64,000 nucleotides of DNA from Ramlibacter montanisoli. GTDB taxonomy: Bacteria > Pseudomonadota > Gammaproteobacteria > Burkholderiales > Burkholderiaceae_C. The stretch is taken from the NCBI RefSeq assembly GCF_013087525.1, contig NZ_JABFCS010000001.1, positions 4,395,502 to 4,459,501 on the forward strand, read 5' to 3'. Positions 1-12,079 of the stretch are shown one piece after another (the first letter of the stretch is position 1; each line of letters opens with the position of its first letter). The notes beneath the pieces are model-generated. The model saw only the letters and a list, made by a program, of their open reading frames with translations. It did not search any database and was not told the DNA's origin. A program made the translations under genes and the position numbers.

Positions 1-126
1 GCCGGCGCCCTCGTCCTCGTCGCCGCGCGCGACGTCCACGTAGGGCGCGCCGGCGGCTTCCAGCGCGAGCCGCACGAATTCGCCGCGGCCCTGGATGCCG
101 GGCCAGTAGTGCAGTTCGTAGGCCAT
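1..126 (-). CDS. Glutathione S-transferase, N-terminal fragment
   Basis: Only the first 42 codons lie in the window. The ATG is at 126 on the minus strand and the reading frame is open to base 1. The peptide begins MAYELHYWPGIQGRGEFVRL, which matches the start of the thioredoxin-like N-terminal domain of cytosolic glutathione S-transferases (beta strand, Tyr/Trp-Pro-Gly region, then a GRGE.vRl.le helix). Such enzymes conjugate glutathione to electrophiles. The rest of the protein is off the window, so class and substrate cannot be judged. It is transcribed divergently from the ThDP enzyme that starts at 207. Confidence 0.75.
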   Translation of the reverse strand, partial: MAYELHYWPGIQGRGEFVRLALEAAGAPYVDVARGDEDEGAG

Positions 127-206
127 GCGCCAGCGTAGCAGAGGCTCCGCGCACGGTGGCCGCCCCCGCCGTGCCCTTAACATGGTGGCTGCACAAGGAG
201 TAGCCC

Positions 207-1743
207 ATGAACGGTGCCAGGAGCCTGGTGGAGACCCTCATCGCCGCCGGCGTGGACACATGCTTCGCCAATCCCGGGACGAGCGAGATGCACTTCGTCG
301 CCGCGCTCGACCAGAGCGCCGGCATCCGCTGCGTGCTGGGCCTGCAGGAGAACGTGGTCACCGGCATGGCCGACGGCTACTGGCGCATCGCCGGCAAGCC
401 GGCCTGCACGCTGCTGCATTGCGGCCCCGGCCTGGCCAATGGCCTCGCCAACCTGCACAACGCGCCGCGCGCGCAGCGGCATCGTCAACATCGTGGGCGA
501 CCAGGCGACCTACCACCGGCCTTTCGACGCGCCGCTGACGGCCGACACCGACGCGCTGGCGCGCGCGGTCTCCGGCTGGCTGCGCACCAGCGCGCGCGCG
601 CAGGACGTGGGGCGCGACGCGGCCGCGGCGGTGCAGGCCGCGCGCACGCTGCCCGGGCAGGTGGCCACGCTGGTGCTGCCCTCGGACGCGTCGTGGAACG
701 AAGGCGGTGTCGTCGCGCAGGCGCTGCCGGTGCCGGCACCCGCGCCGCTCGATCCCTCCGCCGTCGACCGCGCGCGCGCGCTGCGCTTGGGCGGCAGGGT
801 GCTGCTGCTGCTGGCCGGCCGCGCGGTGCAGGCCGAGGCGCAGGGGCTCGCATGGCGCATCGCCAGCGCCACCGGTGCGCGGTTGATGGCGGACTTCGTG
901 AACCCGATGGTCGCGCGCGGGCGCGGCCGGGTGCAGCTCGAACGCGTGCCCTACAAGACCGAACTGGCGATCGAGGCGCTGGCAGGCTTCGAGCACATCA
1001 TCCTGGTCAACGCCAAGGCGCCGGTGGGCTTCTTCGCCTATCCCGGCCTGCCGTCGATCCAGTACCCGCCCGACGCGCAACTGCACGTGCTGTCACGGCC
1101 CGAGCAGGATGCGGTCGCCGCGCTGCGCGCACTGGTGGAGGTGCTGGGCGCACCGGAAGCGGCCATCCCCGACGCCGGCCCGCGACCGCAGGCGGCCAGC
1201 GGCGAGCCCACGCCGGAGAAGCTGGCGCAGACCGTCGCCGCGCTGATGCCCGAGAACGCGATCGTCTCCGATGAAAGCGTGTCGTATGGGCGCGGCTTCT
1301 ACCGGCACTCGCACGCGTCACCGCCGCACGACTGGCTGCACCTGGCCGGCGGCGCCATCGGCGACGGCCTGCCGGTGGCCACCGGCGCCGCCATCGGTGC
1401 CGGCGGCCAGCGCCGCGTGATCGGCCTGCAGGCCGACGGCTCCGCCATGTATTCGCTGCAGGCCCTGTGGACGCAGGCGCGCGAACGGCTGCCGGTCACG
1501 ACCATCCTGCTGAACAACCGCAAGTACGGCATCCTGGTGGGCGAGTACAAGGGTGTCGGCGCCACGCCCGGGCCGACGGCGCTGCGCATGCTGGACCTGG
1601 GCGACCCCGACCTGCAGTGGGTGCGCCTGGCCGAGGGCATGGGCGTGCCCGCCGCGCGGGCCACCACCATGGAACAGTGCGCGGACCTCATGGCGCAGAG
1701 CTTCCGGCAGCCGGGGCCCTTCCTGATCGAGCTGATGGTTTGA
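207..1743 (+). CDS. Thiamine-diphosphate-dependent acetolactate synthase/benzoylformate decarboxylase-like enzyme (frameshift near 470)
   Basis: The ATG at 207 follows an AAGGAG ribosome binding site. The N-terminal part reads [14 protein letters not shown] and [17 protein letters not shown], the pyrimidine-binding domain with the conserved Glu. The frame then shifts by one near 460-475, inside a run of alternating GC. It continues through the central domain to the diphosphate-binding motif (ADGS, about 22 residues, then LNN) near the C-terminus. Both halves are well conserved, giving about 511 residues, the usual family length. Members are large-subunit-like ThDP enzymes that decarboxylate or carboligate 2-oxo acids; the substrate cannot be told from sequence. 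The GDG of the cofactor motif is ADG here. The frame break is probably a sequencing indel, but a real pseudogene is not excluded. Confidence 0.8.
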
Positions 1744-1797
1744 GGTCCGCGGCGCTGCCGGCCCTGCAGCGTGCCCGTGCGGAGCCTCCGGCCCGAA

Positions 1798-2609
1798 TCA
1801 GCGCGCCTTGGCCTGCAGCGCCTGCAGCGAGAACGTGTAGCTCACCTTGTCCAGCGGCTTATGACACGCCAGGCACTCCGCCTGATTCACCCCCGCCCGC
1901 GCCTTCTTGTCCGGCGTGAAGACCGCGTAGTTCCACTCGTCGTTGCGCAGCAACTCCGGGATGTCCTTGCCCCATCCTGCGGCCCGGCCCATGACCGCGT
2001 AGGCCAGCAAGCGGTCCCGCTCGTAGAAGCCATCGCCGCCGACCACCGGCTTGCGGTCGGGGCCGAGCTTCGCGGCGTGCTGCTCGAGAACCAGCACCGA
2101 GCCGTCGGGCAGCGGCTTGCCTTCACGCGCGGCCTGCAGCGCCACCGCGTTGGCGTAGAGGTAGCGCACCTGGTTGATGTCCGCCCGGTTCACGGTCTGG
2201 TACATCGTGAAGCCGTTCGGGTAGCCCTCGGGCAGGGTGGCACTGGTCTTGGCCAGGGTCGGCAGGAAGTCGGACTTCGCGCTGGACACGCCGGCCCCAG
2301 GCAGCGACGAGAAGTAGGCCGCGACGTTGGCCATGTCCTCCGCACTGAGCTGCGCCGCGATGGCCCCCATCACCGCGTTCTTGCGCGAGCCGTCCTTCAG
2401 CGCCCGCAGCTGCGACTGCAGGTAGGCCGCCTTCTGGCCGGCCAGGTTGGGGATGGTGTCGCTGACGCTGACGCCGTTGACGCCATGGCAGGCGGCGCAC
2501 ACTGATTCAGCGCGCGCCTTGCCCGCGGCGAGGTCTTGCGCTCCGGCCAGCGGGGCCATCGCAGCAGCCAGCACCAGCATGCCGGTGCGACCGAGGGGGA
2601 CGACTTCAT
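1798..2609 (-). CDS. Exported cytochrome c with C-terminal cytochrome P460 domain (frameshift near 2597)
   Basis: The N-terminal c-type domain has a CAACH haem site. A P460-like domain follows (VNRADINQVRYLYAN, then GWGKDIPELLRNDEWNYAVF) with a second haem site, CLACHK, near the C-terminus. Cytochrome P460 proteins are periplasmic and oxidise hydroxylamine/NO in some bacteria; many homologues have unknown electron-transfer roles. The best start is the ATG at 2609 with an AAGGAGG site just upstream. Its frame joins the main frame only if one base is added in the G-run at 2595-2599, which gives a normal signal peptide (MKSSP... then LVLAAAMAPLAGAQ). Without that correction the start would be an internal ATG around 2583. 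Length is about 270 residues. Confidence 0.8.
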
Positions 2610-2673
2610 GGGCGCCTCCTTGTGGGTGGACGGACTGTACGCGCTCAGTCACGGATCAGGTGCGCCAGCAACG

Positions 2674-3633
2674 CTATGCCACGAGCCCGGAGAGGATTCT
2701 CTGCGCGACGGCACGATCATCCAGGTACGCCACGATGCCGTGGCGGTTGTCGGTGTAGTTGTCGACGTCGTTCTTGTTCTCGATGGCAGGCGTCACCGGA
2801 AAATTCGCGGCGTCGAGCGGGTAGAGGGCGACGACGTCGCGGGGATCGAACGCGTTGTACCAGGACGCGACCGCGGGCCGGGGATAGCGGATCGGGCGGA
2901 ACCGGTCCCGGATCGCACGCACGCCCAAGGGGCTTCCGACCGTCACGTAGAGCGGCACCTGGAGCGCACGCCGGTCGTTGACGAGGACGCTGTAAGTGAC
3001 GACCGAACCCAGCGAGTGGCCCACGACCACGGTCGGTTCCTCCGTGAGCTGCGCCGCGACCAGCCTGTCGATGGCGTCGCGCACGGCGGGCCGCGTCACA
3101 TAGAGGAAGACGTCGCGGGTGAAGAGTTCCAGCGAAGCCTGGTTCATGCCCCGGCCGTTCTTGTCGATCGCCCGCAGCACCGCCTGCACCCATTTCCAGT
3201 TCAGCGGCCCGCGCTCCTGGACGGGCCCGTCGAATTCGGAGTTCACCTTTTCTTCGGGAATGCCGGCGCCCTGGCGGATCGATTCGGCCATCTCGTACTG
3301 GAACTTCAGGAACTCGTCGTTCTGCTCGCCCCGTGCCTGCACGTCCGACGTGAGCGGGATGTCCATCTGGCGGGCATAGGCGTCGAGCAGGTCGCCGTAG
3401 AAGGGAAAGGCGACCTCGACGCGCGGCGCGAGGGCCGAGCCGGATTTCGCGGCGCCGCGATGGAGGGCCGCCACCCACTCCTGCTGCAGCTTGACGGGAT
3501 CCTTGCCTTCCTGCGCGCGGCCATGGACCAGCAGCAGGCGCGACGCTCGCACCGGTTGTGCGCGAGGCGCCCCGACAAATCCCGAGAGCGCCATCGCCGA
3601 GAGGCCGGCGATCACCTGCCGCCTGTTGTTCAT
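2674..3633 (-). CDS. Exported alpha/beta hydrolase, lipase-like
   Basis: A 319-residue protein with a signal peptide resembling a twin-arginine type (MNNRRQVIAGLSAMALSG). It then shows the alpha/beta-hydrolase core: an oxyanion-region LLLVHGRA near 33-40, the nucleophile elbow GHSLGS at 205-210 (Ser207), and a candidate acid and His toward the end (YNAFDPRDVV, NRHGIVAYL). It is expected to act outside the cytoplasm on an ester or lipid. It starts 11 bases after the end of the caspase-like gene on the same strand, so the two are almost certainly co-transcribed. The substrate is unknown. Confidence 0.75.
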   Translation of the reverse strand: MNNRRQVIAGLSAMALSGFVGAPRAQPVRASRLLLVHGRAQEGKDPVKLQQEWVAALHRGAAKSGSALAPRVEVAFPFYGDLLDAYARQMDIPLTSDVQARGEQNDEFLKFQYEMAESIRQGAGIPEEKVNSEFDGPVQERGPLNWKWVQAVLRAIDKNGRGMNQASLELFTRDVFLYVTRPAVRDAIDRLVAAQLTEEPTVVVGHSLGSVVTYSVLVNDRRALQVPLYVTVGSPLGVRAIRDRFRPIRYPRPAVASWYNAFDPRDVVALYPLDAANFPVTPAIENKNDVDNYTDNRHGIVAYLDDRAVAQRILSGLVA

Positions 3634-3644
3634 GGCGCCTCCTC

Positions 3645-5474
3645 CTAGACCCGCAGCCGTCCCGACCGGAGGGCGTCCAGCAGCAGTCGGGTTCCCTGCG
3701 GCTCCAGGGTCGTCCAGAGGGCGGGCCGCAGGTGGTCGCGCAAGGCCTCGATTTCCTTGGGCAACTCGACATTGTTGACACGCAGCAGGGCCCAGCCCTG
3801 CGCCAGCATCGGGCAGAACGGCGCGCAGGTCCGCAGCGTCGCCTCCTTCTTCGCCAGGGCGCCGGAGAGCATCGCCGTGTCGAACAGATCGAAGCCGAGG
3901 TCGCCGCGCATGATGCCGCGCACGGAAGCCACGCCGCGCTGCTGGCCCGCTTCGGAGTAAGCGTATGCCGCGTAGAGCCCGAGCGTGGGATCGACATCCT
4001 TCATCATCCGCACCGTATCGGCCAGGCGTGCCCCGGCATTCCTCCCGCCGCCTTCCTCGCGTTCGATCCGGAAGACGCCGAAGCGCGCCGCCGTCGCGAC
4101 CGAGGCGTGCAATTCGACCAGGCGCCTCGCGTCATAACCCCCGTGCCGCGGGACGTAGCTCACGTTGATGACGCCATTGCGAGCGACTGCGATGTTGCCC
4201 GCGAAGCCGTGCAAGGCGGCCACCAGCGTGGACGATCCGTCGGCGAACTGGATCAGCGCGCTCGCGGCGCGGCCGCGCGGCACGTTGACGGCAACGGCCT
4301 GGTCGCCGATGCGCTCGAAGGGCCGCGGCGGTCCATCCAGGATCAGGAAGGCCGAGTCGATGGGCTGGCCCGAGACCAGGAAGCCGGTCGTGAATGCGCT
4401 GGGCAGCCTGCGGGCAAACGCCTCCAGCTCGTTCATCTGGCCCGCGACCTCGGACTGGGCCTTGGAAAATCCGGTCTTCGTGTCGAGGTCTCGGGTCGCC
4501 TGCCGATACGCTGCGAGCTCGGTGTCCTTGCGCGGGCCCACCTGCACGATGCCCCGCAGGCCGACATCGCCGAGGTTGGCCGCCGCGATATGCCGCAAGC
4601 CCGTGGCCGTGCCGGTCGAAGCGGCCATCGTGGTCTTCGCGGCCTTCGCGATGTAGATGTCGTCGTCCGACGTGACCTGGGCGTCGGGCCGCTGGTTCAG
4701 CTGGATGTTGATCCGCTGCGCCCGCAGCGGGACCTCGCGCTCGAGGAAGCGCTTGAGCCGCTTGTTCGGAACGACGTCCACGCCCCCGACCTTGCTCACG
4801 ATGTCCGTGGGCGCCTCGGCGAACGCGGACAGCAGCGTCGTCGTGTAGATGCCGGCGTAGTTCCTGGTGCTGTCGGTGATCGCGGCTTCGAAGGAGGGGT
4901 CGCCCACGAGCGTCGCCAGGAACTGGTCCACGTCGGACGGCTGCACTGAGCCCGAGGTCGGGAAGATGATGCCGCCCCGGATGGCCGACAGGCCGAGGCT
5001 GCGCGGGGTGGACCGGCAGGCATCGGAGATGAAGACCACATTCGGGATCCCCGAATAGAGGCGGGCCAGCTGCACGCTCTCGCGCAGGCTCACCGACTGG
5101 TTGGGATTGCGCGTCGCGTCCGACAGCAGCCAGTACTCGACGTACTCGGCGGCCAGGCCGTGCCCGGCGAAGTACACGACGAGCTGCTCGATCGTGCCCT
5201 TGCGGATGAAGCCGTCGATCGCGGCAAAGATGCGGTCGACCGTGACCGGCGTGTCGTCGTCGACCAGCGCTGCCACGTCGTAGCCCTCGGCCTTGAGCAG
5301 CGTCTCGACCTCGCGGGCCCCCGACGCGGCGGCCCGCAGCTTCGGCAGGTCGCCGGCCTTGTCCACGCCGATCACCACTGCGGCCCGCTGCCTGGGCCGC
5401 GGTTGACTCCACGCCGGTCGAAGCGGCGCAAGGCCTGCGAGCGCACCGGTCAGCACGAGCGGACGTCGTTTCAT
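3645..5474 (-). CDS. Exported caspase-family (C14, metacaspase-like) protein
   Basis: 609 residues. The ATG at 5474 is preceded by GGAGGAGGG at normal spacing. A signal peptide (MKRRPLVLTGALAGLAPL) is followed directly by a C14 domain: the first strand AAVVIGVDKAGDLPKL, the catalytic His in VVYFAGHG (His105) and the catalytic Cys in VFISDACRS (Cys153). Caspase-like cysteine peptidases cleave after basic (metacaspase) or acidic residues; specificity is not readable here. About 400 residues after the peptidase domain have no family I recognise; they look like a mixed alpha/beta and helical substrate- or partner-binding part. It heads a two-gene unit with the lipase-like hydrolase. No regulatory site was recognised. 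Confidence 0.85.
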   Translation of the reverse strand: MKRRPLVLTGALAGLAPLRPAWSQPRPRQRAAVVIGVDKAGDLPKLRAAASGAREVETLLKAEGYDVAALVDDDTPVTVDRIFAAIDGFIRKGTIEQLVVYFAGHGLAAEYVEYWLLSDATRNPNQSVSLRESVQLARLYSGIPNVVFISDACRSTPRSLGLSAIRGGIIFPTSGSVQPSDVDQFLATLVGDPSFEAAITDSTRNYAGIYTTTLLSAFAEAPTDIVSKVGGVDVVPNKRLKRFLEREVPLRAQRINIQLNQRPDAQVTSDDDIYIAKAAKTTMAASTGTATGLRHIAAANLGDVGLRGIVQVGPRKDTELAAYRQATRDLDTKTGFSKAQSEVAGQMNELEAFARRLPSAFTTGFLVSGQPIDSAFLILDGPPRPFERIGDQAVAVNVPRGRAASALIQFADGSSTLVAALHGFAGNIAVARNGVINVSYVPRHGGYDARRLVELHASVATAARFGVFRIEREEGGGRNAGARLADTVRMMKDVDPTLGLYAAYAYSEAGQQRGVASVRGIMRGDLGFDLFDTAMLSGALAKKEATLRTCAPFCPMLAQGWALLRVNNVELPKEIEALRDHLRPALWTTLEPQGTRLLLDALRSGRLRV

Positions 5475-5661
5475 GGCGGGACCCTCCTCCTGCGCCTGCG
5501 ACGCTCCCCAGGGCACGGGGCCCGGGGTCACCATCACGGGCGGGGTTCGTTTCGCAAACTACTGACCGTGCGGACGCTTGTCAAGCCGTGGCGAGGAGTC
5601 GCCCTTGTGCGCCGTAGCAAGTGCGTGCGATGCCTGCCGTCGTTGGCGCCTTCGCCGGCGC

Positions 5662-5985
5662 TCAGGACAGGATCCAGCGCGCCAGTTGCCGGGCTTCCCG
5701 TTGGTTGATCTGCGGCCGCTCGCTGCCATCGGGCATCCTCGCAGTGCCCCAGTGGGGACCCAGGTTGGCACTGCTGCCCATGCGGATGACATCGACGAGC
5801 TTGCGTTCGGGCGACTTCATGCGCTTGTACACGGCCTTGATGTCGCGGAAGGACGGGCCGATCACATGCTTGTCCACCGCGTGGCACTGCATGCACTGCT
5901 TCGCCTCTGCCAGCTTCGCGTTCGCAAGCGCGGGGCCGGATGCGCCCGCCGCGAGGAAGAGGGCGGGGAGCAGCATGAGCTTCAT
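5662..5985 (-). CDS. Small periplasmic cytochrome c
   Basis: 107 residues with a clear signal peptide (MKLMLLPALFLAAGASGPALA). A single haem-binding motif CMQCHA follows, and then the distal Met region (RMGSSANLGPHWGTARMPDG), as in class I cytochrome c-551/552-type proteins. It is expected to shuttle electrons in the periplasm. It is monocistronic as far as can be seen; its partner oxidoreductase is not in the neighbourhood. It resembles the c-type domain of the P460 protein at 1798-2609 only in general fold. Confidence 0.85.
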   Translation of the reverse strand: MKLMLLPALFLAAGASGPALANAKLAEAKQCMQCHAVDKHVIGPSFRDIKAVYKRMKSPERKLVDVIRMGSSANLGPHWGTARMPDGSERPQINQREARQLARWILS

Positions 5986-6085
5986 TGGTGACTCCAGCAG
6001 TGGGGGCTTGAAGGTACTCCGCGCCCGCAGGTGAGTTTGACGGTCCTCAAGGAAGCGCTGTGTGGGGAAGTCCTTTGCCTGGTTG

Positions 6086-7487: not shown

Positions 7488-7718
7488 TCAGCGGCCGACG
7501 ACTGCCGCCAGCTCCCAGGTTCCGGCCTGTTCGTCGCACCGCAGCACATAGCTGCCCTCGTCGGTATCCACCTTCCACCAGCGCTGGGTGGCGCCGTACC
7601 ACCTGTCGCTGACCGTGCGCACCTCGACGCGCCGGGATCCGAACCAGATCACGCTTGGTTCGGGGTCGCTTGTCGCTGTCGTGGTTTCAACCCGGATCAT
7701 GTGCTGAAGGTAGCGCAT
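7488..7718 (-). CDS. Small hypothetical protein
   Basis: 76 residues, or 70 if the second ATG at 7700 is used. The sequence has a compact beta pattern with WFGSRRVEVRTVSDRWYG, RWWKVDTDEGSYVLRCD and GTWELAAVV. The repeated aromatic/Arg spacing resembles the small DUF6504-type proteins often found near error-prone polymerase genes, but no such gene is nearby and the match is by memory only. Base composition is that of the host rather than the adjacent island. Confidence 0.5.
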   Translation of the reverse strand: MRYLQHMIRVETTTATSDPEPSVIWFGSRRVEVRTVSDRWYGATQRWWKVDTDEGSYVLRCDEQAGTWELAAVVGR

Positions 7719-8145
7719 GTCCGCTTCCGACCCTCTGCTGTTCCGTCGCTGCGCCTACCTGAGCGGCAGCAATGCAGCGGTTGCTGCCCATCGTCGCCCA
7801 CGCCTGAACTCACGCTTTCGGTCATATTGCATTCATTCGCGGCGCTGCGGTGCATCCCCCACAGCGAGCGGTATCGAGACTGCTGACTTAGCCCTGCGCA
7901 TCGGTGGAACGAGGGATCTCGAGATGCCGCTGGCGCACGGCTCAAACGGGCACTCTCGACTCACAGCTGCCGTCGTCCACGAAGAACTGGAGTGGCCAAC
8001 CGCCGGAGTATCAATCCGTCGTTCGTAGCAGTGCCAGCTTTCCGTGATCAGCGGTTTTGAGTGGAACAGCGCATTGCAGCAGCAACTTTGGATGCCATAG
8101 GCACCAGCCTTCGGAACCCCGGATCATGCCGGGCACTCCGCCTCC
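7719..8145. other. Intergenic stretch, island left flank
   Basis: About 430 bases in which I see no convincing gene on either strand. Short open frames here have no family signature and no ribosome binding sites. Composition changes from the GC-rich host style to the less GC-rich style of the following genes somewhere in this stretch. I could not identify an integrase, a tRNA end or flanking repeats. Confidence 0.4.
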
Positions 8146-8149
8146 GTGT

Positions 8150-8178
8150 TTGATCGCTCCACCGTTCAGCACAATAAT
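8150..8178 (+). promoter_or_regulatory. Possible sigma70-like promoter of the SIR2 operon
   Basis: TTGATC (8150-8155) and AATAAT (8173-8178) are separated by 17 bases. A start site 7 bases downstream would coincide with the ATG at 8185, so the first gene may be translated from a leaderless or nearly leaderless message; no Shine-Dalgarno precedes it. A very similar hexamer pair precedes the second island operon. This is inference from sequence only. Confidence 0.35.
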
Positions 8179-8184
8179 TCGCGC

Positions 8185-8991
8185 ATGGCGAAGCCCCCAC
8201 GTCTCTACAAGTACCAGCCCTTTTCCCCGCGGTCCATCGAAAACCTGAAGAACCAGGTTGTCTACTTCGGTTCACCGCGAGCCTTCAATGATCCTTTCGA
8301 TTGCGCACTGTCGCCTCAATTAAAGGTGCCAACTGACGACGATCTGCGAAAGCTTCGTGACCATTGGCTAGCCACCAAGCCGTTCGACGAATCACAGCGA
8401 AACGCGCTCAAAGCAATCCCATTCGACGAACTCCGAAGCAATGTCACACAGACAGTACGAAAGACGCTGAGGGAGAGTGTCGACAAGTTTTCAACGACGC
8501 AGGGGGTCACCTGCTTCGCCGAACGACCGAACAACTTGCTCATGTGGTCGCACTATGCAGACCACCATCGCGGCTTCTGTCTTGAATTTCGCACGGACGT
8601 TCCCGACTTCGGCAAGCTGCGTCAGGTCACCTATTCGGACCAAATGCCAGAGATTGATCCCGTTCGAATGCTCATTGATGACGAGTACGAAGAGTTCCTG
8701 AGCCTCTTTTGCACGAAGGCACAGGACTGGCAGTACGAACGGGAATGGCGGGGATGGCACAAGGAAGCTGGAACCGCGTATACCTATCCCGCAGAAGCGC
8801 TCACAGGCGTTTACTTCGGCGCAAGGGCATCGTTCACCTCTTTCGAAATCGTGGCACTGATCTTGGCCGGCCAGAACGAGGAGGTAGGCCTATGGGAGGG
8901 CTCCCGCAGCGAGGACTCTTTCTCGATTGTTTTCGAGCAAAAGACGTACACGTCGTACTTAAACGCAAAGCGCCGTGGACTCATTCCGTGA
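8185..8991 (+). CDS. DUF2971 protein, candidate defence component
   Basis: 268 residues. The start at ATG 8185 gives MAKPPRLYKYQPF, the usual beginning of DUF2971 proteins (xLYKYr.f....ienL). A GTG at 8146 in the same frame is less likely. Conserved features are VVYFGSPRAFNDPFDC, GVTCFAERPNNLLMWSHYAD, GFCLEF and the late EREWRGWHKE. DUF2971 proteins are often found in defence islands but no activity is established. It lies 75 bases before the next gene, on the same strand and with the same lower-GC codon use, so it probably belongs to the SIR2 operon. Confidence 0.75.
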   Translation: MAKPPRLYKYQPFSPRSIENLKNQVVYFGSPRAFNDPFDCALSPQLKVPTDDDLRKLRDHWLATKPFDESQRNALKAIPFDELRSNVTQTVRKTLRESVDKFSTTQGVTCFAERPNNLLMWSHYADHHRGFCLEFRTDVPDFGKLRQVTYSDQMPEIDPVRMLIDDEYEEFLSLFCTKAQDWQYEREWRGWHKEAGTAYTYPAEALTGVYFGARASFTSFEIVALILAGQNEEVGLWEGSRSEDSFSIVFEQKTYTSYLNAKRRGLIP

Positions 8992-9066
8992 TGAGACTGC
9001 GCACGCGGCACCTCGCTTCCGAAGAAGCCGTGCCAGTAAGTCAGCCAGAGGTGAAGAAGCGCCCAT

Positions 9067-9558
9067 ATGCGACTGAAATTGGATGATCTGCGGCAGATCA
9101 CCGCAAGAGGCGAATGGAAGGCATTGGCCGCGTCCGTCGCCGCGACGGACACAGCCGTGTTGCGACGCGAGGACTTCGAAACGTACTGGATCGAAGCCGG
9201 GCACCAGATCCGCGAGCAAGTGGACGATGATCGGGCGCTGATCCGCCTACTTCGGAAGATGTTGCCTCCGTACTCCGGCCCTGGTTTAGACCTTTATAGG
9301 GGCGAAAACGTCAACAGATGGCGTGCGGGGCGCCTAGGCTTGGCATGGACGCTCGACGTGGAAACGGCGCGCATGTTTGGGCGCGGGCTCAATGCATTTT
9401 ACGGCGGTGGAGTCTTACTACGAGCGCGGTTTGAGGCTCCCGCGATCCTTAGCGCGCCATCCGAGCACAGTCGATACCTCGACGAAGGTCAATTCACCGT
9501 GGACCCATTCGCTGGAACGGGTATGGTGGTGATAGAAGTCTACCCAGAAGTCACATAG
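9067..9558 (+). CDS. Unknown protein, possibly ADP-ribosyltransferase-like
   Basis: 163 residues. The N-terminal 60 residues are helical and charged. The second half has LYRGENVNRW (Arg78), GLAWTLDVETARMFG (94-105), a short hydrophobic strand and DEGQFTVDP near 139-147. That order (Arg strand, S/T-rich strand followed by an E..A..F helix, then an acidic motif) recalls the fold of ADP-ribosyltransferase-like toxins and phage proteins. The canonical STS and E/Q-x-E motifs are not exact, so this is only a suggestion. A GAGGTGA sequence lies about 12 bases before the ATG. The gap to the SIR2 gene is only 8 bases, so they are co-transcribed. Confidence 0.6.
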   Translation: MRLKLDDLRQITARGEWKALAASVAATDTAVLRREDFETYWIEAGHQIREQVDDDRALIRLLRKMLPPYSGPGLDLYRGENVNRWRAGRLGLAWTLDVETARMFGRGLNAFYGGGVLLRARFEAPAILSAPSEHSRYLDEGQFTVDPFAGTGMVVIEVYPEVT

Positions 9559-9566
9559 GACAAGAC

Positions 9567-10763
9567 ATGCCGCATCCTGGCTTTCGCATCTTCGTTTTGG
9601 GTGCAGGCTTTTCAAGGCCAGCAGGCCTGCCGCTGGCCAGCGAACTTTTCCCGCTCGTCAAGAACTCCATCGAGGAACGCCATGGGCGGGACACCAAGTT
9701 CCATAAGGACCTGGCGGACTACATTCGATACAAGAAATTGGCGGACGGCGAGGAAGTACATGAGAGCGCAGTGGACCTAGAGGCGCTGCACTCGCATTTG
9801 GACATTGAGCACTTTCTTGGTCTCCGCGGCAGCGACACTTGGAGTAAGGAGGGCAACGAATCACAACTCATGATCCGCCGTGCGATCGGGGAAGTCATTC
9901 ATCGGCACACGCCAGCGCTAGACAAACTGCCGTCCGCCTACTATCGGTTCGCGGAGAATCTTTCTTTGCACGATTGGGTGCTGACGCTCAACTACGACCT
10001 CGTTCTCGAACGTGCCCTGGAACATGTCGGAAAACCCTATCGACTGTTCCCACACCGGTTCGTGGACGTTGGAGAGCACTTGAACGTGGTTGATTCGAGC
10101 AAGGAAGAGGTCATCTTGCTCAAGCTGCATGGCTCCGTAGATTGGTTTCATAACGCGAGCTTCCTCGAACAGCGTGCCTCGTTAGGGCCTCGAACTGCTG
10201 CGGGCCCAGTAGTACACGAAGTCTTTGATTTCCCGGAGCGCTTCGGAGTGTCTCCGCTCGTCGAGGGCCCCCGCCAACCGGATGATCCGCTTCGGCATGT
10301 GCAGCGAATCAAGAACTGCGATGCGTTCTACCGATCCTCTCGCGGCTTCGACGCCCCTTTCATTCTTTCTCCGTCACACGTCAAATTCGTGTATGCGCAG
10401 CCCTTGCTCAGCTTTTGGCATGGGATGGGACAGTCAGGAGGTTGGAACCTAGGCCTGAATGTGATCGGCTTTTCCTTGCCACAGCATGACGAGTACATCC
10501 GCGTTGGTCTGTACCAGATGATCCGAAACTTCCAGTTTTACTCATGGGACACGAACTTCTTCGGGCACCACAAAGATTACGTGAAGTTCGTGGACTTCCA
10601 AGCTTCGAGGGATGGGATGAACAGGTACCTCAAACGGTACGCCTTCTCCGAACCAAGTAGGTCCGCCTTTCTGTTTGCCGGGTTCGGTGACGATGCCGTT
10701 GAATTTCTGTTCACCCAACAGCGGCCCGCACCAACGAACATCGTAACCGGTGCAATCGGTTGA
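9567..10763 (+). CDS. SIR2-like NAD-hydrolase domain protein, predicted anti-phage effector
   Basis: 398 residues. SIR2-family motifs appear in order: GAGFSRPAG at 12-20 (NAD-binding glycine loop), TLNYD at 140-144 and LKLHGSVDW at 186-193, with His188 as the expected catalytic base. A late NVIGFSLPQHDEYIR resembles the GxSL..D..i strand of SIR2_2 domains. In known systems (ThsA, DSR, SIR2-HerA, AVAST and others) such domains destroy NAD+ on infection. The protein is stand-alone, with no STALD, TPR or HerA fusion. An AGGACA sequence sits 8 bases before the ATG. Its trigger is presumably the 9067 or 8185 product, which is inference. Confidence 0.85.
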   Translation: MPHPGFRIFVLGAGFSRPAGLPLASELFPLVKNSIEERHGRDTKFHKDLADYIRYKKLADGEEVHESAVDLEALHSHLDIEHFLGLRGSDTWSKEGNESQLMIRRAIGEVIHRHTPALDKLPSAYYRFAENLSLHDWVLTLNYDLVLERALEHVGKPYRLFPHRFVDVGEHLNVVDSSKEEVILLKLHGSVDWFHNASFLEQRASLGPRTAAGPVVHEVFDFPERFGVSPLVEGPRQPDDPLRHVQRIKNCDAFYRSSRGFDAPFILSPSHVKFVYAQPLLSFWHGMGQSGGWNLGLNVIGFSLPQHDEYIRVGLYQMIRNFQFYSWDTNFFGHHKDYVKFVDFQASRDGMNRYLKRYAFSEPSRSAFLFAGFGDDAVEFLFTQQRPAPTNIVTGAIG

Positions 10764-10925
10764 CGCCGCATTGCGAGGCCCCCGGATGTCTCAGCCGCTC
10801 TGCATGCACGCCTGCAGGGCGGCTGCGCGTGCCTTCGGTCCAATTGACGGCCAATTGGCTTGCGGAAGCCGGCTGCCAGGGTGCGCTTGCCGCGCGCCGT
10901 TCGATGCCCGGTATCGATTGCACGT

Positions 10926-10939
10926 CAACAACATTGTTG
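10926..10939. promoter_or_regulatory. Short palindrome upstream of second island operon
   Basis: CAACAA and TTGTTG form a perfect inverted repeat separated by two bases, 20 bases upstream of the candidate -35 at 10959. It could be an operator for a small dimeric regulator, but no regulator gene is encoded in the island, so the site may also be chance. Confidence 0.25.
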
Positions 10940-10958
10940 CCGCGCACCACTTAGGTGA

Positions 10959-10987
10959 TTGTCGGGCGGCTTATTCCAGCCAATAAT
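10959..10987 (+). promoter_or_regulatory. Possible sigma70-like promoter of the PIN/HEPN operon
   Basis: TTGTCG (10959-10964) and AATAAT (10982-10987) are 17 bases apart, the same spacing and same -10 hexamer as the candidate promoter at 8150-8178. A start near 10994 would place the GGAGGGG ribosome binding site at the very 5' end of a short leader before the ATG at 11011. Confidence 0.4.
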
Positions 10988-11010
10988 CCGCGACAACGGA
11001 GGGGACTGCC

Positions 11011-11064
11011 ATGGTGCGAGGTTGGACCGCAAAGGCCCATGTTGCGTTGGTACGCGCAGCGTGA
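11011..11064 (+). CDS. 17-residue leader peptide, coupled to next gene
   Basis: A strong GGAGGGG site lies 7 bases before an ATG that opens a 17-codon frame, MVRGWTAKAHVALVRAA. Its TGA overlaps the GTG start of the membrane protein (GTGA at 11061-11064). The good ribosome binding site serves this frame, and the next gene has none of its own, which points to translational coupling. There is no run of a single amino acid as in attenuator peptides. It could be a regulatory leader or a very small functional peptide. Confidence 0.5.
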   Translation: MVRGWTAKAHVALVRAA

Positions 11065-11594
11065 GCGACTTTACTTGGCACTACTTGTTGCCGCTGACGC
11101 CACTCGTAAGCCGCTTCTTGGTGGCTGCATCGTGGCACAGGCTCATGGCGAAAGCTCTCCCCGAAGCCGCGCAGGAACGCGATTTCCAGCGCGCGACGAT
11201 TCTCAGCCTCGCGGGATTTAGTTTCACGGCCGCCGCTGGACTAGCAGTGCTGGATGCGCGAACCCGGTTGGGGCTCCAGCTTCCCATTTGGTTCGTCGCG
11301 GTGAGCTTTGTGGCTTACCTCAGCGCTCACAACATGCAGGCATACAAGGCGACTTGGCTTCAAGACCAAGTGGCGACAGCGCTGTCAGAGGCAGGGAGCC
11401 TCTCCTTGAACTTGGCGCTTATAAGTCTGCTGCTCAGTGCGAACAAGCCCGATGAAGGGCTCGCCTCCTGGTTCAAATGTCTGGTGACGGTTGTCGCTCT
11501 AAGCGCATGGGCCGTGGATCACATTGCGAGGCTATACATCGAATGCACGTACTTCGGCGCGGCAGCTGAGGAGGGCTCCAATGAGCACGCGTAA
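11061..11594 (+). CDS. Integral membrane protein of unknown function
   Basis: 177 residues from a GTG at 11061. The frame is open further upstream to a TTG at 10959, but that codon overlaps the predicted promoter and the extra residues look non-coding. Four to five hydrophobic segments are visible: FTWHYLLPLTPLVSRFLVA, ILSLAGFSFTAAAGLAVL, LPIWFVAVSFVAYL, LSLNLALISLLL and LVTVVALSAWAVDHI. No family was recognised. The 3' end overlaps the histone-like gene by 14 bases. A membrane protein in a nuclease-bearing defence operon could be an effector or a sensor; that is inference. Confidence 0.65.
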   Translation: MSDFTWHYLLPLTPLVSRFLVAASWHRLMAKALPEAAQERDFQRATILSLAGFSFTAAAGLAVLDARTRLGLQLPIWFVAVSFVAYLSAHNMQAYKATWLQDQVATALSEAGSLSLNLALISLLLSANKPDEGLASWFKCLVTVVALSAWAVDHIARLYIECTYFGAAAEEGSNEHA

Positions 11595-11958
11595 GCCACC
11601 GTCAGAAGGAACGGGTGCGAAGAAAGCGCCAGCGAAGAAGGCAGGAGCGAAGCGCCCTGCGGCGAGGAAGACGACAGCGAAGCGTCCGGCGGCCAAGAAG
11701 ACGACAGCGAAGCGTCCGGCGGCCAAGAAGACGACAGCGAAGCGCCCGGCGGCCAAGAAGGCAGCAGCGAAGCGCCCGGCAGCCAAGAAGGCAGCCGCAA
11801 AAGGTTCCTCATGGGGAATGGCTTCGGGCCGAACACCGGCGAAGCGCTCCAATGGGGGCATTTCGTTGGGCCGTTCGGAGTCAATCGCAACTTTCGTGAG
11901 GTGTGACGTGTGCGGGCTTCGTTTTCCGCGAGGTTTGTCATGTCCGCGGTGTGCTTAG
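11581..11958 (+). CDS. Histone H1-like Lys/Ala-rich protein with C-terminal zinc ribbon
   Basis: 125 residues. Residues about 12-75 are a highly basic run of decapeptides of the type TTAKRPAAKK, like the tails of eukaryotic H1 and of bacterial H1-like proteins (AlgP/BphH1 type). The C-terminus has two CxxC knuckles (CDVCGLRF then CPRC), which would bind one zinc ion. The basic tail should bind DNA or RNA without sequence specificity. The gene overlaps the preceding gene by 14 bases and is followed after one base by a small ORF and then by the PIN gene, so it is inside a nuclease operon. Confidence 0.75.
   Translation: MSTRKPPSEGTGAKKAPAKKAGAKRPAARKTTAKRPAAKKTTAKRPAAKKTTAKRPAAKKAAAKRPAAKKAAAKGSSWGMASGRTPAKRSNGGISLGRSESIATFVRCDVCGLRFPRGLSCPRCA
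11647..11796 (+). repeat. Five tandem 30-bp coding repeats
   Basis: Five head-to-tail copies of a 30-base unit (each beginning GCGAAGCG and containing GCCAAGAAG or a variant) start at 11647, 11677, 11707, 11737 and 11767. Copies 2 and 3 are identical; the others differ by a few substitutions. Each encodes one decapeptide of the basic tail, so the tail can lengthen or shorten in ten-residue steps. Confidence 0.9.
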
Positions 11959-11959
11959 C

Positions 11960-12079
11960 GTGTTCGTCGCGGTGTTGGCCCAAGAGCCCATCTTCGGCGC
12001 CTACGCCATGGACTGCCAATTCAAAGAAGACCTGACGCGCGCGCGTGCTAGCAACGTGGTGAGGGACGCTCGGACATGA
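11960..12079 (+). CDS. Possible 39-residue protein coupled to the PIN gene
   Basis: An open frame from GTG 11960, one base after the histone-like stop, runs to a TGA that overlaps the ATG of the PIN gene (ATGA at 12076-12079). An internal ATG at 12008 would give 23 residues with the C-terminus FKEDLTRARASNVVRDART. No ribosome binding site is convincing for either start. The tight packing on both sides argues that it is translated, at least to couple the PIN gene. No family was recognised. Confidence 0.35.
   Translation: MFVAVLAQEPIFGAYAMDCQFKEDLTRARASNVVRDART

What the first reader, a model, noticed from the sequence alone, without database searches (positions are those of the whole stretch)
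2674..5474. Exported caspase-like peptidase paired with an exported lipase-like hydrolase
Both carry signal peptides and intact catalytic residues (His105/Cys153; Ser207), are 11 bases apart, and are followed by no immunity-like or regulatory gene. Most bacterial caspase homologues are cytoplasmic or fused. A secreted pair could attack other cells or process envelope proteins.
Basis: partly seen in the sequence, partly recalled or inferred. Interest (0 to 1): 0.5.

Follow-up and report, generated by a model that had tools for sequence, protein, structure and literature searches.

The report
Exported caspase with matching cuttable lipase
Two neighbouring bacterial genes, a protein-cutting enzyme related to our own cell-death caspases and a fat-splitting-type enzyme, occur together in very different bacteria, and the first seems built to cut the second at two matched spots; in one branch, which includes this one, both carry tags for export out of the cell interior.

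Summary
Window 2674-5474 (-) encodes a caspase-like peptidase (His105/Cys153) and, 11 bases on, an alpha/beta-hydrolase (Ser207/Asp266/His298), both with twin-arginine (Tat) type leaders.

The pair recurs: of 43 high-scoring loci (>=240 bits) from a hydrolase-only scan of GTDB genomes, 42 have a caspase or CHAT gene adjacent. No third Pfam family recurs. Of 52 distinct pairs, 14 have Tat leaders on both partners, 37 on neither, 1 on the caspase only. The Tat pairs fit one clade, so co-export arose about once. Most pairs lack Tat leaders, which argues against a secreted weapon.

New: the hydrolase has two R/K-G sites (101/102, 141/142) in flexible loops. The residue before Gly matches between sites in 43 of 57 pairs (shuffles 24). 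Caspase residue 196, aligned with MALT1 Glu500 (binds P1 Arg), is acidic in 46 of 46 pairs with basic 101 but 2 of 11 others; each column is the other's best partner. I infer that the caspase clips the hydrolase cap and switches it on. Cleavage, trigger and lipid target are untested, and independent switches are too few for a tree-aware test.

Caspase-hydrolase pairing was known inside larger conflict systems (Kaur 2020).

The parts
3645..5474 (-). Caspase-like (paracaspase-like) peptidase, 609 aa: Tat-type leader 1-24, caspase domain ~25-278, linker ~285-315, C-terminal region ~316-609 of unassigned function
5403..5474 (-). Tat-type signal peptide of the caspase (MKRRPLVLTG..., end approximate)
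   Evidence: sequence; rule
5160..5162 (-). codon of catalytic His105
   Evidence: 40 of 40
5016..5018 (-). codon of catalytic Cys153
   Evidence: 39 of 40
4887..4889 (-). codon of Glu196, aligned with MALT1 Glu500 of the S1 pocket
3556..3633 (-). Tat-type signal peptide of the hydrolase (MNNRRQVIAG..., end approximate)
   Evidence: sequence; rule; TIGR01409 below cut-off
3328..3333 (-). predicted cut site 1, Arg101-Gly102 (V-Q-A-R|G)
3208..3213 (-). predicted cut site 2, Arg141-Gly142 (V-Q-E-R|G)
3013..3015 (-). codon of nucleophile Ser207
   Evidence: 40 of 40
2836..2838 (-). codon of Asp266, triad acid
   Evidence: 40 of 40
2740..2742 (-). codon of His298, triad base
   Evidence: 40 of 40

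Best explanation
A self-contained two-gene cascade: a paracaspase-like peptidase cuts its partner, a lipase-like alpha/beta-hydrolase, after the basic residue of two R/K-G sites in the hydrolase's cap (R101|G102 and R141|G142), opening or removing a ~40-residue stretch and so switching on an enzyme aimed at membrane or envelope esters. In most bacteria the pair acts in the cytoplasm. In the proteobacterial clade that includes the window, both partners carry Tat leaders, so the cascade sits in the periplasm. Shown from sequence: linkage, conserved catalytic residues, co-export pattern, covariation of sites and pocket. Inferred: cleavage, that cleavage activates rather than inactivates, the lipid target, and a conflict or stress (self-damage) role. 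Unknown: the trigger, perhaps sensed by the caspase's C-terminal region.
For: Linkage: of 79 hydrolase-scan loci, 46 have a caspase just 5' (median gap -1 base, 43 of 46 within 30), 3 a caspase 3', 2 a CHAT 3'; of the 43 with profile score >=240 (a limit I chose after seeing the scores) 42 have a caspase or CHAT adjacent. The two gene trees mirror each other (r 0.92, 0 of 2000 permutations as high). dN/dS 0.04-0.38 in the 10 of 14 comparisons not saturated. Sites: column 101 is R/K in 46 of 57 pairs and 102 is Gly in 54 of 57; 101 and 141 bear the same residue in 43 of 57 (shuffled mean 24, 0 of 5000 as high), the highest of 289 columns, and R/K switches agree best with 141. Pocket: caspase 196 is D/E in 46 of 46 pairs with basic 101 and 2 of 11 others; in blind scans 196 ranks first of 583 caspase columns and 101 first of 290 hydrolase columns. 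HMMER aligns 196 with the Glu of MALT1 that by count is Glu500, one of the residues assigned to P1-Arg specificity (PMC4357240, passages). MALT1 takes Arg at P1 and has a fairly strict need for Gly at P1' (PMC6207715, passages), and MALT1 is the nearest solved fold (Z 23.3, 214 residues, 2.7 A). Both sites lie in coil, in interior regions of lower model confidence (91-110: pLDDT 75-77; 131-150: 85-88; one further block, 161-170, is also 88). Two lone hydrolases (one genus) whose genomes hold no family caspase have lost site 1. Four R/K pairs found after the prediction was written down all have Glu196.
Against: No experiment. Independent changes are few: sign tests on the trees do not reach 0.05, and most non-basic pairs are one old clade in which other columns (39, 141) also differ. 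L075 (M/M) and L100 (G/K) keep Glu196. The other pocket acid, Asp151, is unchanged in non-basic pairs. Two of the four new pairs (L155, L170) share a genus with L080 of the first set, so they are weak confirmation. The lone hydrolases keep R141, so it may have a structural role. Against the idea that R101-G102 goes with a caspase: L094 (5' neighbour an oxidoreductase) has R101 but Asp102, 1 of 19 Acinetobacter paralogues (L108) aligns R-G there, and L174, a distant hydrolase with no family caspase found in 10 kb, does too. Hydrolases beside the large WD40/NACHT/TPR-type caspases lack the loop, so pairing does not need it. L097 has Trp for the catalytic Cys. The R-G loops might dock without being cut. 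Defence-island enrichment was not shown.
Confidence: 0.55

Rival explanations
1. Pseudosubstrate complex: the two R/K-G loops sit in the active sites of a caspase dimer without being cut; the hydrolase is the inhibitor or scaffold, and release frees one or both enzymes.
For: The same covariation of 101, 141 and 196 would follow. Overlapping genes and mirrored trees fit a stable complex.
Against: Gly right after the residue in 54 of 57 pairs is the cut-site signature of MALT1 substrates, and the loops are predicted less rigid.
Confidence: 0.2
2. The R-G loops are a structural feature of the hydrolase; the two enzymes act in the same pathway on separate targets (for example envelope proteins and lipids) without one cutting the other.
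For: R141 persists in two lone hydrolases, and hydrolases beside the large WD40/NACHT-type caspases lack the loop.
Against: Does not explain why the caspase pocket residue 196 is the best partner of column 101, nor why M or Q replaces R/K at both sites while Gly mostly stays.
Confidence: 0.2
3. Secreted antagonistic pair that attacks other cells.
For: Both window proteins carry export leaders.
Against: 37 of 52 pairs have no Tat leader; Tat stops at the periplasm (recalled); no Pfam family recurs more than twice among 112 neighbours.
Confidence: 0.05

Closest known systems
Caspase plus alpha/beta-hydrolase pairing of MoxR-vWA-VMAP and GAP1-N1 conflict systems (Kaur et al. 2020, PMC7159879, passages read)
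   Same: A caspase-superfamily domain with a neighbouring alpha/beta-hydrolase gene (always, in VMAP systems); the authors suggest the two operate together.
   Different: There the caspase belongs to a larger NTPase-centred system. Here it is a two-gene unit without MoxR or vWA genes nearby. The term 'signal peptide' does not occur in that paper's main text; the passages I saw name no cut site.
MALT1 paracaspase and its R|G substrates (PMC4357240, PMC6207715, passages read)
   Same: Caspase fold (Z 23.3), Asp462 and Glu500 of the S1 pocket aligned, R/K-G sites like its Arg-Gly cut sites.
   Different: Bacterial, one dedicated partner gene, exported in one clade; no acid found at the place of Asp365 by eye; no activity measured.
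Bacterial gasdermin systems (PMC9079055, seen only as abstract opening in the listing; the rest recalled)
   Same: A caspase-like protease next to the gene of a membrane-damaging partner that is released by cutting.
   Different: The partner here is an alpha/beta-hydrolase, not a pore former, with two predicted internal sites.
EACC1-caspase two-gene systems (NF047832; Kaur et al. 2020)
   Same: All 40 aligned caspases match the NF047832 profile at E <= 1e-3, best 7.8e-13.
   Different: The window protein scores 37.4 bits against a cut-off of 140 (bit scores of the other 39 not shown), and the gene 5' of it is a cytochrome c gene.

Membership tests
Peptidase family C14 (caspase fold) | His/Cys dyad and caspase fold | tested here: met
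   Pfam 33.6 against cut-off 21.4; dyad in 39 of 40 members; MALT1 Z 23.3
Peptidase family C14 (caspase fold) | Proteolytic activity with basic P1 preference (C14B) | not testable with these tools
   Only inferred from Asp151 and Glu196 aligned with MALT1 Asp462 and Glu500
Alpha/beta-hydrolase superfamily | Fold and Ser-Asp-His triad | tested here: met
   Triad 40 of 40; VIA-align Z 11.7-14.1 in the 50 rows shown (lipases, TesA, LPLA2, LCAT); Foldseek itself gave only 4 matches at E <= 0.001; Pfam gathering scores not reached
Tat substrates | RR-x-[hydrophobic] leader with hydrophobic core on both proteins, Tat machinery in host | tested here: met
   Rule met by both window proteins (it also fires on 23 of 504 other ORFs); TatC present
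Tat substrates | Curated Tat-signal model score | tested here: not met
   TIGR01409 14.1 against 16.7 on the hydrolase; no hit on the caspase
Tat substrates | Tat-dependent export in cells | not testable with these tools
   needs reporter fusions
EACC1-caspase system | NF047832 score above cut-off and EACC1 gene 5' | tested here: not met
   37.4 against 140 bits; the gene 5' is a cytochrome c gene
VMAP (MoxR-vWA) ternary system | MoxR and vWA genes beside the pair | tested here: not met
   No PF07726 or PF13519 match of the own genome lies in the window; flanks are cytochrome c, P460 and TPP-enzyme genes; no Pfam family in more than 2 of 112 neighbours of 40 pairs
Bacterial gasdermin system | Gasdermin partner | tested here: not met
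   The partner has an alpha/beta-hydrolase model and triad
Known anti-phage system (PADLOC) | Match to a named system | tested here: inconclusive
   Only a generic 'caspase' model, E 4e-8, on the caspase; none on the hydrolase

The most novel reading that the evidence does not exclude
A bacterial paracaspase-zymogen cascade that was moved as a unit from cytoplasm to periplasm: protease and lipase gained Tat leaders together, and the protease cuts two matched R/K-G sites to excise the lipase's lid, with pocket and sites co-evolving. It would be a periplasmic, lipid-hydrolysing counterpart of protease-gasdermin cell-death modules.
Probability: 0.35. Interest if true: 0.85.

Novelty: new variant of a known kind. 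Interest (0 to 1): 0.66.

Why it matters
What bacterial caspases cut is a long-standing open question (recalled). Here sequence alone names a partner, two exact bonds and the pocket residue that should read them, so the question can be settled with two purified proteins. If right, it also shows a caspase-type cascade working in the periplasm and relocated with its substrate as one unit.

Tried and rejected
A phylum-wide draw for more pairs matched 5 of 398 genomes, 2 of them new; a family draw matched 7 of 233; a class draw matched 7 of 369, and its 6 new places (L175-L180, partial matches) were not examined further. Viral contigs gave 2 distant hydrolases without the loop or a family caspase; the phage collection gave none for the caspase and 2 Acinetobacter records of the distant hydrolase.

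Check of the predictions on loci fetched after it (14 loci, one of them, L169, the contig of L080). A family caspase was found beside the hydrolase in 8 (L155, L156, L159, L160, L162, L169, L170, L172), not in 6 (L157, L158, L161, L171, L173, L174); L171 starts at a contig end and the other 5 score 78-145 bits. No new pair has a Tat leader by eye, so co-export got no fresh positive. Pocket and site agree in all new pairs, but the non-basic ones belong to the old clade. 'Lone hydrolases lose R/K101' fails for L174.

Defence-island test: PADLOC tallies of 112 neighbours of pairs against 59 neighbours (of 112 drawn up) of Acinetobacter loci; inconclusive, since the control also gave hits, many from near-identical loci. 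Insertion site: the one congener with a close copy of the downstream cytochrome gene shares only that gene (89%), so no empty site could be shown. Caspase linker (residues 276-325): no conserved self-cut site seen by eye. Caspase Asp151 as the covarying residue: it does not vary.

Rows dropped before counts: in the 52-pair set L041 and L064 (copies of L063 and L049), L123 (cut by contig end), L125, L134, L135 (very long caspases), L054 (broken reading frames); L052 has a caspase by tblastn but was missed by the script. The 57-pair set adds L155, L156, L159, L170, L172 and leaves out L160 (near copy) and L162 (broken hydrolase). The Tat set was first named by me and then re-tested by rule.

Print searches for an exported pair or the R-G sites; none of the listed titles and abstract openings described them (open-licence PMC only; I opened six papers, passages only).
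Full report
OBSERVATION. His105, Cys153 and Ser207 are correct; Asp266 and His298 complete the hydrolase triad. In 40 aligned members (window included) His105, Ser207, Asp266 and His298 are in all 40, and Cys153 in 39. Pfam C14 is above cut-off for the caspase, while the hydrolase has only sub-threshold matches. AlphaFold models are good (pLDDT 88.6 and 90.5). The caspase domain (about 25-278) is closest to MALT1 (Z 23.3, 2.7 A over 214 residues). The hydrolase is weakly matched by Foldseek (4 chains at E <= 0.001) and at Z 11.7-14.1 by VIA-align to lipases, thioesterases and phospholipase-type enzymes, which shows a fold, not a substrate.

SIGNALS. Both leaders have the twin-arginine pattern (MKRRPLVLTG..., MNNRRQVIAG...). 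The curated Tat model is just missed on the hydrolase (14.1 against 16.7) and does not hit the caspase. The host has TatC.

DOES THE PAIR RECUR? Yes. Plasmids of Sinorhizobium, Ensifer, Bradyrhizobium and Hymenobacter carry both genes side by side. Of 79 loci, 46 have a caspase gene just upstream (median gap -1 base, range -19 to 193, 43 of 46 within 30), 3 have one downstream, 2 have a CHAT gene downstream, 19 are Acinetobacter loci of a distant paralogue (the one tested lies beside an amino-acid permease gene), and 9 are others, one of which (L129) has a gene with caspase, NACHT/AAA and TPR matches divergently next to it. Of 43 loci with profile score >=240, a limit chosen after seeing the scores, 42 have a caspase or CHAT gene adjacent. 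They come from Pseudomonadota, Actinomycetota, Bacteroidota, Planctomycetota, Gemmatimonadota, Acidobacteriota and Thermodesulfobacteriota (titles; labels). In three actinomycete loci and one Chitinophaga locus the adjacent caspase protein also holds WD40 repeats; NACHT or AAA matches were shown for two of the four (L112, L135), the lists for the other two being cut at 25 families. Trees of the two proteins mirror each other (r 0.92; 0 of 2000 permutations as high), and close pairs show purifying selection (dN/dS 0.04-0.38 in 10 of 14 comparisons, the rest saturated). Near home the caspase is sporadic: of 98 other genomes, 58 of them congeners, 11 had a match and each covered only part of it, within residues 8-219.

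NO THIRD GENE. Among 112 neighbouring ORFs (up to three per pair, picked mechanically) of 40 pairs, no Pfam family occurs in more than 2. No MoxR or vWA match of the host lies in the window. So the unit looks like two genes, without an immunity or regulator gene that Pfam knows. PADLOC tallies did not show defence-island enrichment.

CO-EXPORT. By a fixed rule, 14 of 52 distinct pairs have Tat leaders on both proteins, 37 on neither, 1 on the caspase only (L050, whose hydrolase has the RR motif but a weak hydrophobic core); the rule fires on 23 of 504 other ORFs. Sec leaders were not tested apart; the proteins without Tat leaders each have a start codon within 14 residues of the domain. The 15 Tat pairs (L050 counted) form one clade in the caspase tree (97/76), also with all leaders cut off (97/67, 95% of bootstrap trees). 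In the hydrolase tree the free search needs two changes and one clade appears in only 2% of bootstrap trees, but a tree with them held together has a higher likelihood and is not rejected (AU p 0.55). So the concordance is about one evolutionary event, then kept in 15 lineages of alpha-, beta- and gammaproteobacteria; it is not 15 independent events. That most pairs lack such leaders suggests that the family acts inside its own cell, and that the window's clade moved the same reaction to the periplasm.

A MECHANISM WRITTEN IN THE SEQUENCE. In the hydrolase a loop carries [V/I]-x-x-R/K-G at 98-102. Column 101 is R/K in 46 of 57 pairs, M in 8, Q in 2, G in 1; column 102 is Gly in 54 of 57. A second R/K-G lies at 141-142. 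The two positions bear the same residue in 43 of 57 pairs (shuffled mean 24.1, none of 5000 as high), the highest of 289 columns, and when one is K rather than R the other tends to be K too (Fisher p 0.001, the lowest of the columns tested). Where R/K is replaced by M or Q, the Gly mostly stays. Both sites lie in coil between helices, in interior regions of lower model confidence (91-110: pLDDT 75-77; 131-150: 85-88; block 161-170 is also 88).

The partner side. I asked which caspase column is acidic when column 101 is basic. Residue 196 came first of 583 columns: 46 of 46 against 2 of 11 (p 6e-9, not corrected for kinship). In the reverse scan, column 101 came first of 290 hydrolase columns. 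A profile alignment puts 196 on a MALT1 glutamate that by my count, with one offset fitting Asp462, Gln494 and Ala498 as well, is Glu500; with Asp365 and Asp462 it is held responsible for P1 Arg specificity (PMC4357240, passages; also PMC4626109, passages). That alignment is weak as a whole (E 0.005). Natural MALT1 substrates listed in PMC6207715 are cut between Arg and Gly (passages). Two separate losses of Glu196 (L085 and L091, both to Gln) and one old clade all coincide with loss of the basic residue. Two lone hydrolases of one genus, in genomes with no family caspase, have lost site 1, though both keep R141. Predictions were written down before further pairs were drawn: four new R/K pairs all have Glu196 (two of them from the genus of L080), and new M-type plasmid copies have Met196, but the latter belong to the old clade and add no independent switch.

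LIMITS. Tree-aware sign tests cannot reach 0.05 with so few switches. L075 and L100 break the pocket rule. Asp151 never changes in the pairs compared. Hydrolases beside the very large caspases lack the loop, and three hydrolases without a known caspase partner (L094, L108, L174) have an Arg in the aligned place, two of them followed by Gly. Whether cutting activates or inactivates is inferred from the sites' place in the helical stretch that precedes the nucleophile strand.

KNOWN OR NEW. Kaur et al. 2020 (PMC7159879, passages) reported that caspase domains in VMAP systems always have a neighbouring alpha/beta-hydrolase gene and suggested the two operate together; a related hydrolase also occurs in their GAP1-N1 systems. 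The pairing idea is therefore known. The two-gene form across phyla, the Tat-exported clade, and the matched cut sites with a co-varying pocket were not described in the listings of my searches of a library that holds only open-licence papers. I file it as a new variant of a known kind.

Noticed in passing
L056 (own genome C1:1910000-1928000), about 1918151-1919607 on the minus strand: A second, distant hydrolase-plus-caspase unit in the host, in reverse order (hydrolase first); the C14 match is split between two reading frames, so it may be a fused gene with a frameshift or a sequence error.
   Followed up: partly
window 1798-2652 (-): A cytochrome c/P460 gene directly downstream; one congener (G022) has it at 89% DNA identity but shares no other DNA in the 18 kb compared, so the neighbourhood looks like a mosaic.
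   Followed up: partly
L054 (G322, same family): Both genes of the pair carry an internal stop in the aligned stretch (TAA in the caspase; TGA in the hydrolase), as if decaying together; an ORF upstream looks trypsin-like by eye.
   Followed up: no
L159, L160: Agrobacterium pTi plasmids carry the M-type pair (Met at hydrolase 101 and caspase 196) next to a ParB-like gene and, in L159, a helicase gene.
   Followed up: partly
L088: A three-gene row: caspase, hydrolase, CHAT-TPR protein, with a 4-base overlap between the last two.
   Followed up: no
L048, L051/L078, L079: The hydrolase is followed by a CHAT-domain gene instead of a caspase (S. fredii plasmid, two Massilia species) and still has Arg at 101 and 141.
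   Followed up: partly
window about 7501-12000: G+C falls to 0.55-0.61 from 0.67-0.75 in 1-6000, which may mark acquired DNA.
   Followed up: no
L107 and 18 other Acinetobacter loci; phage records H41, H42: A distant paralogue of the hydrolase, beside an amino-acid permease gene in the one tested, with no family caspase adjacent; also in two records named Acinetobacter phage.
   Followed up: no
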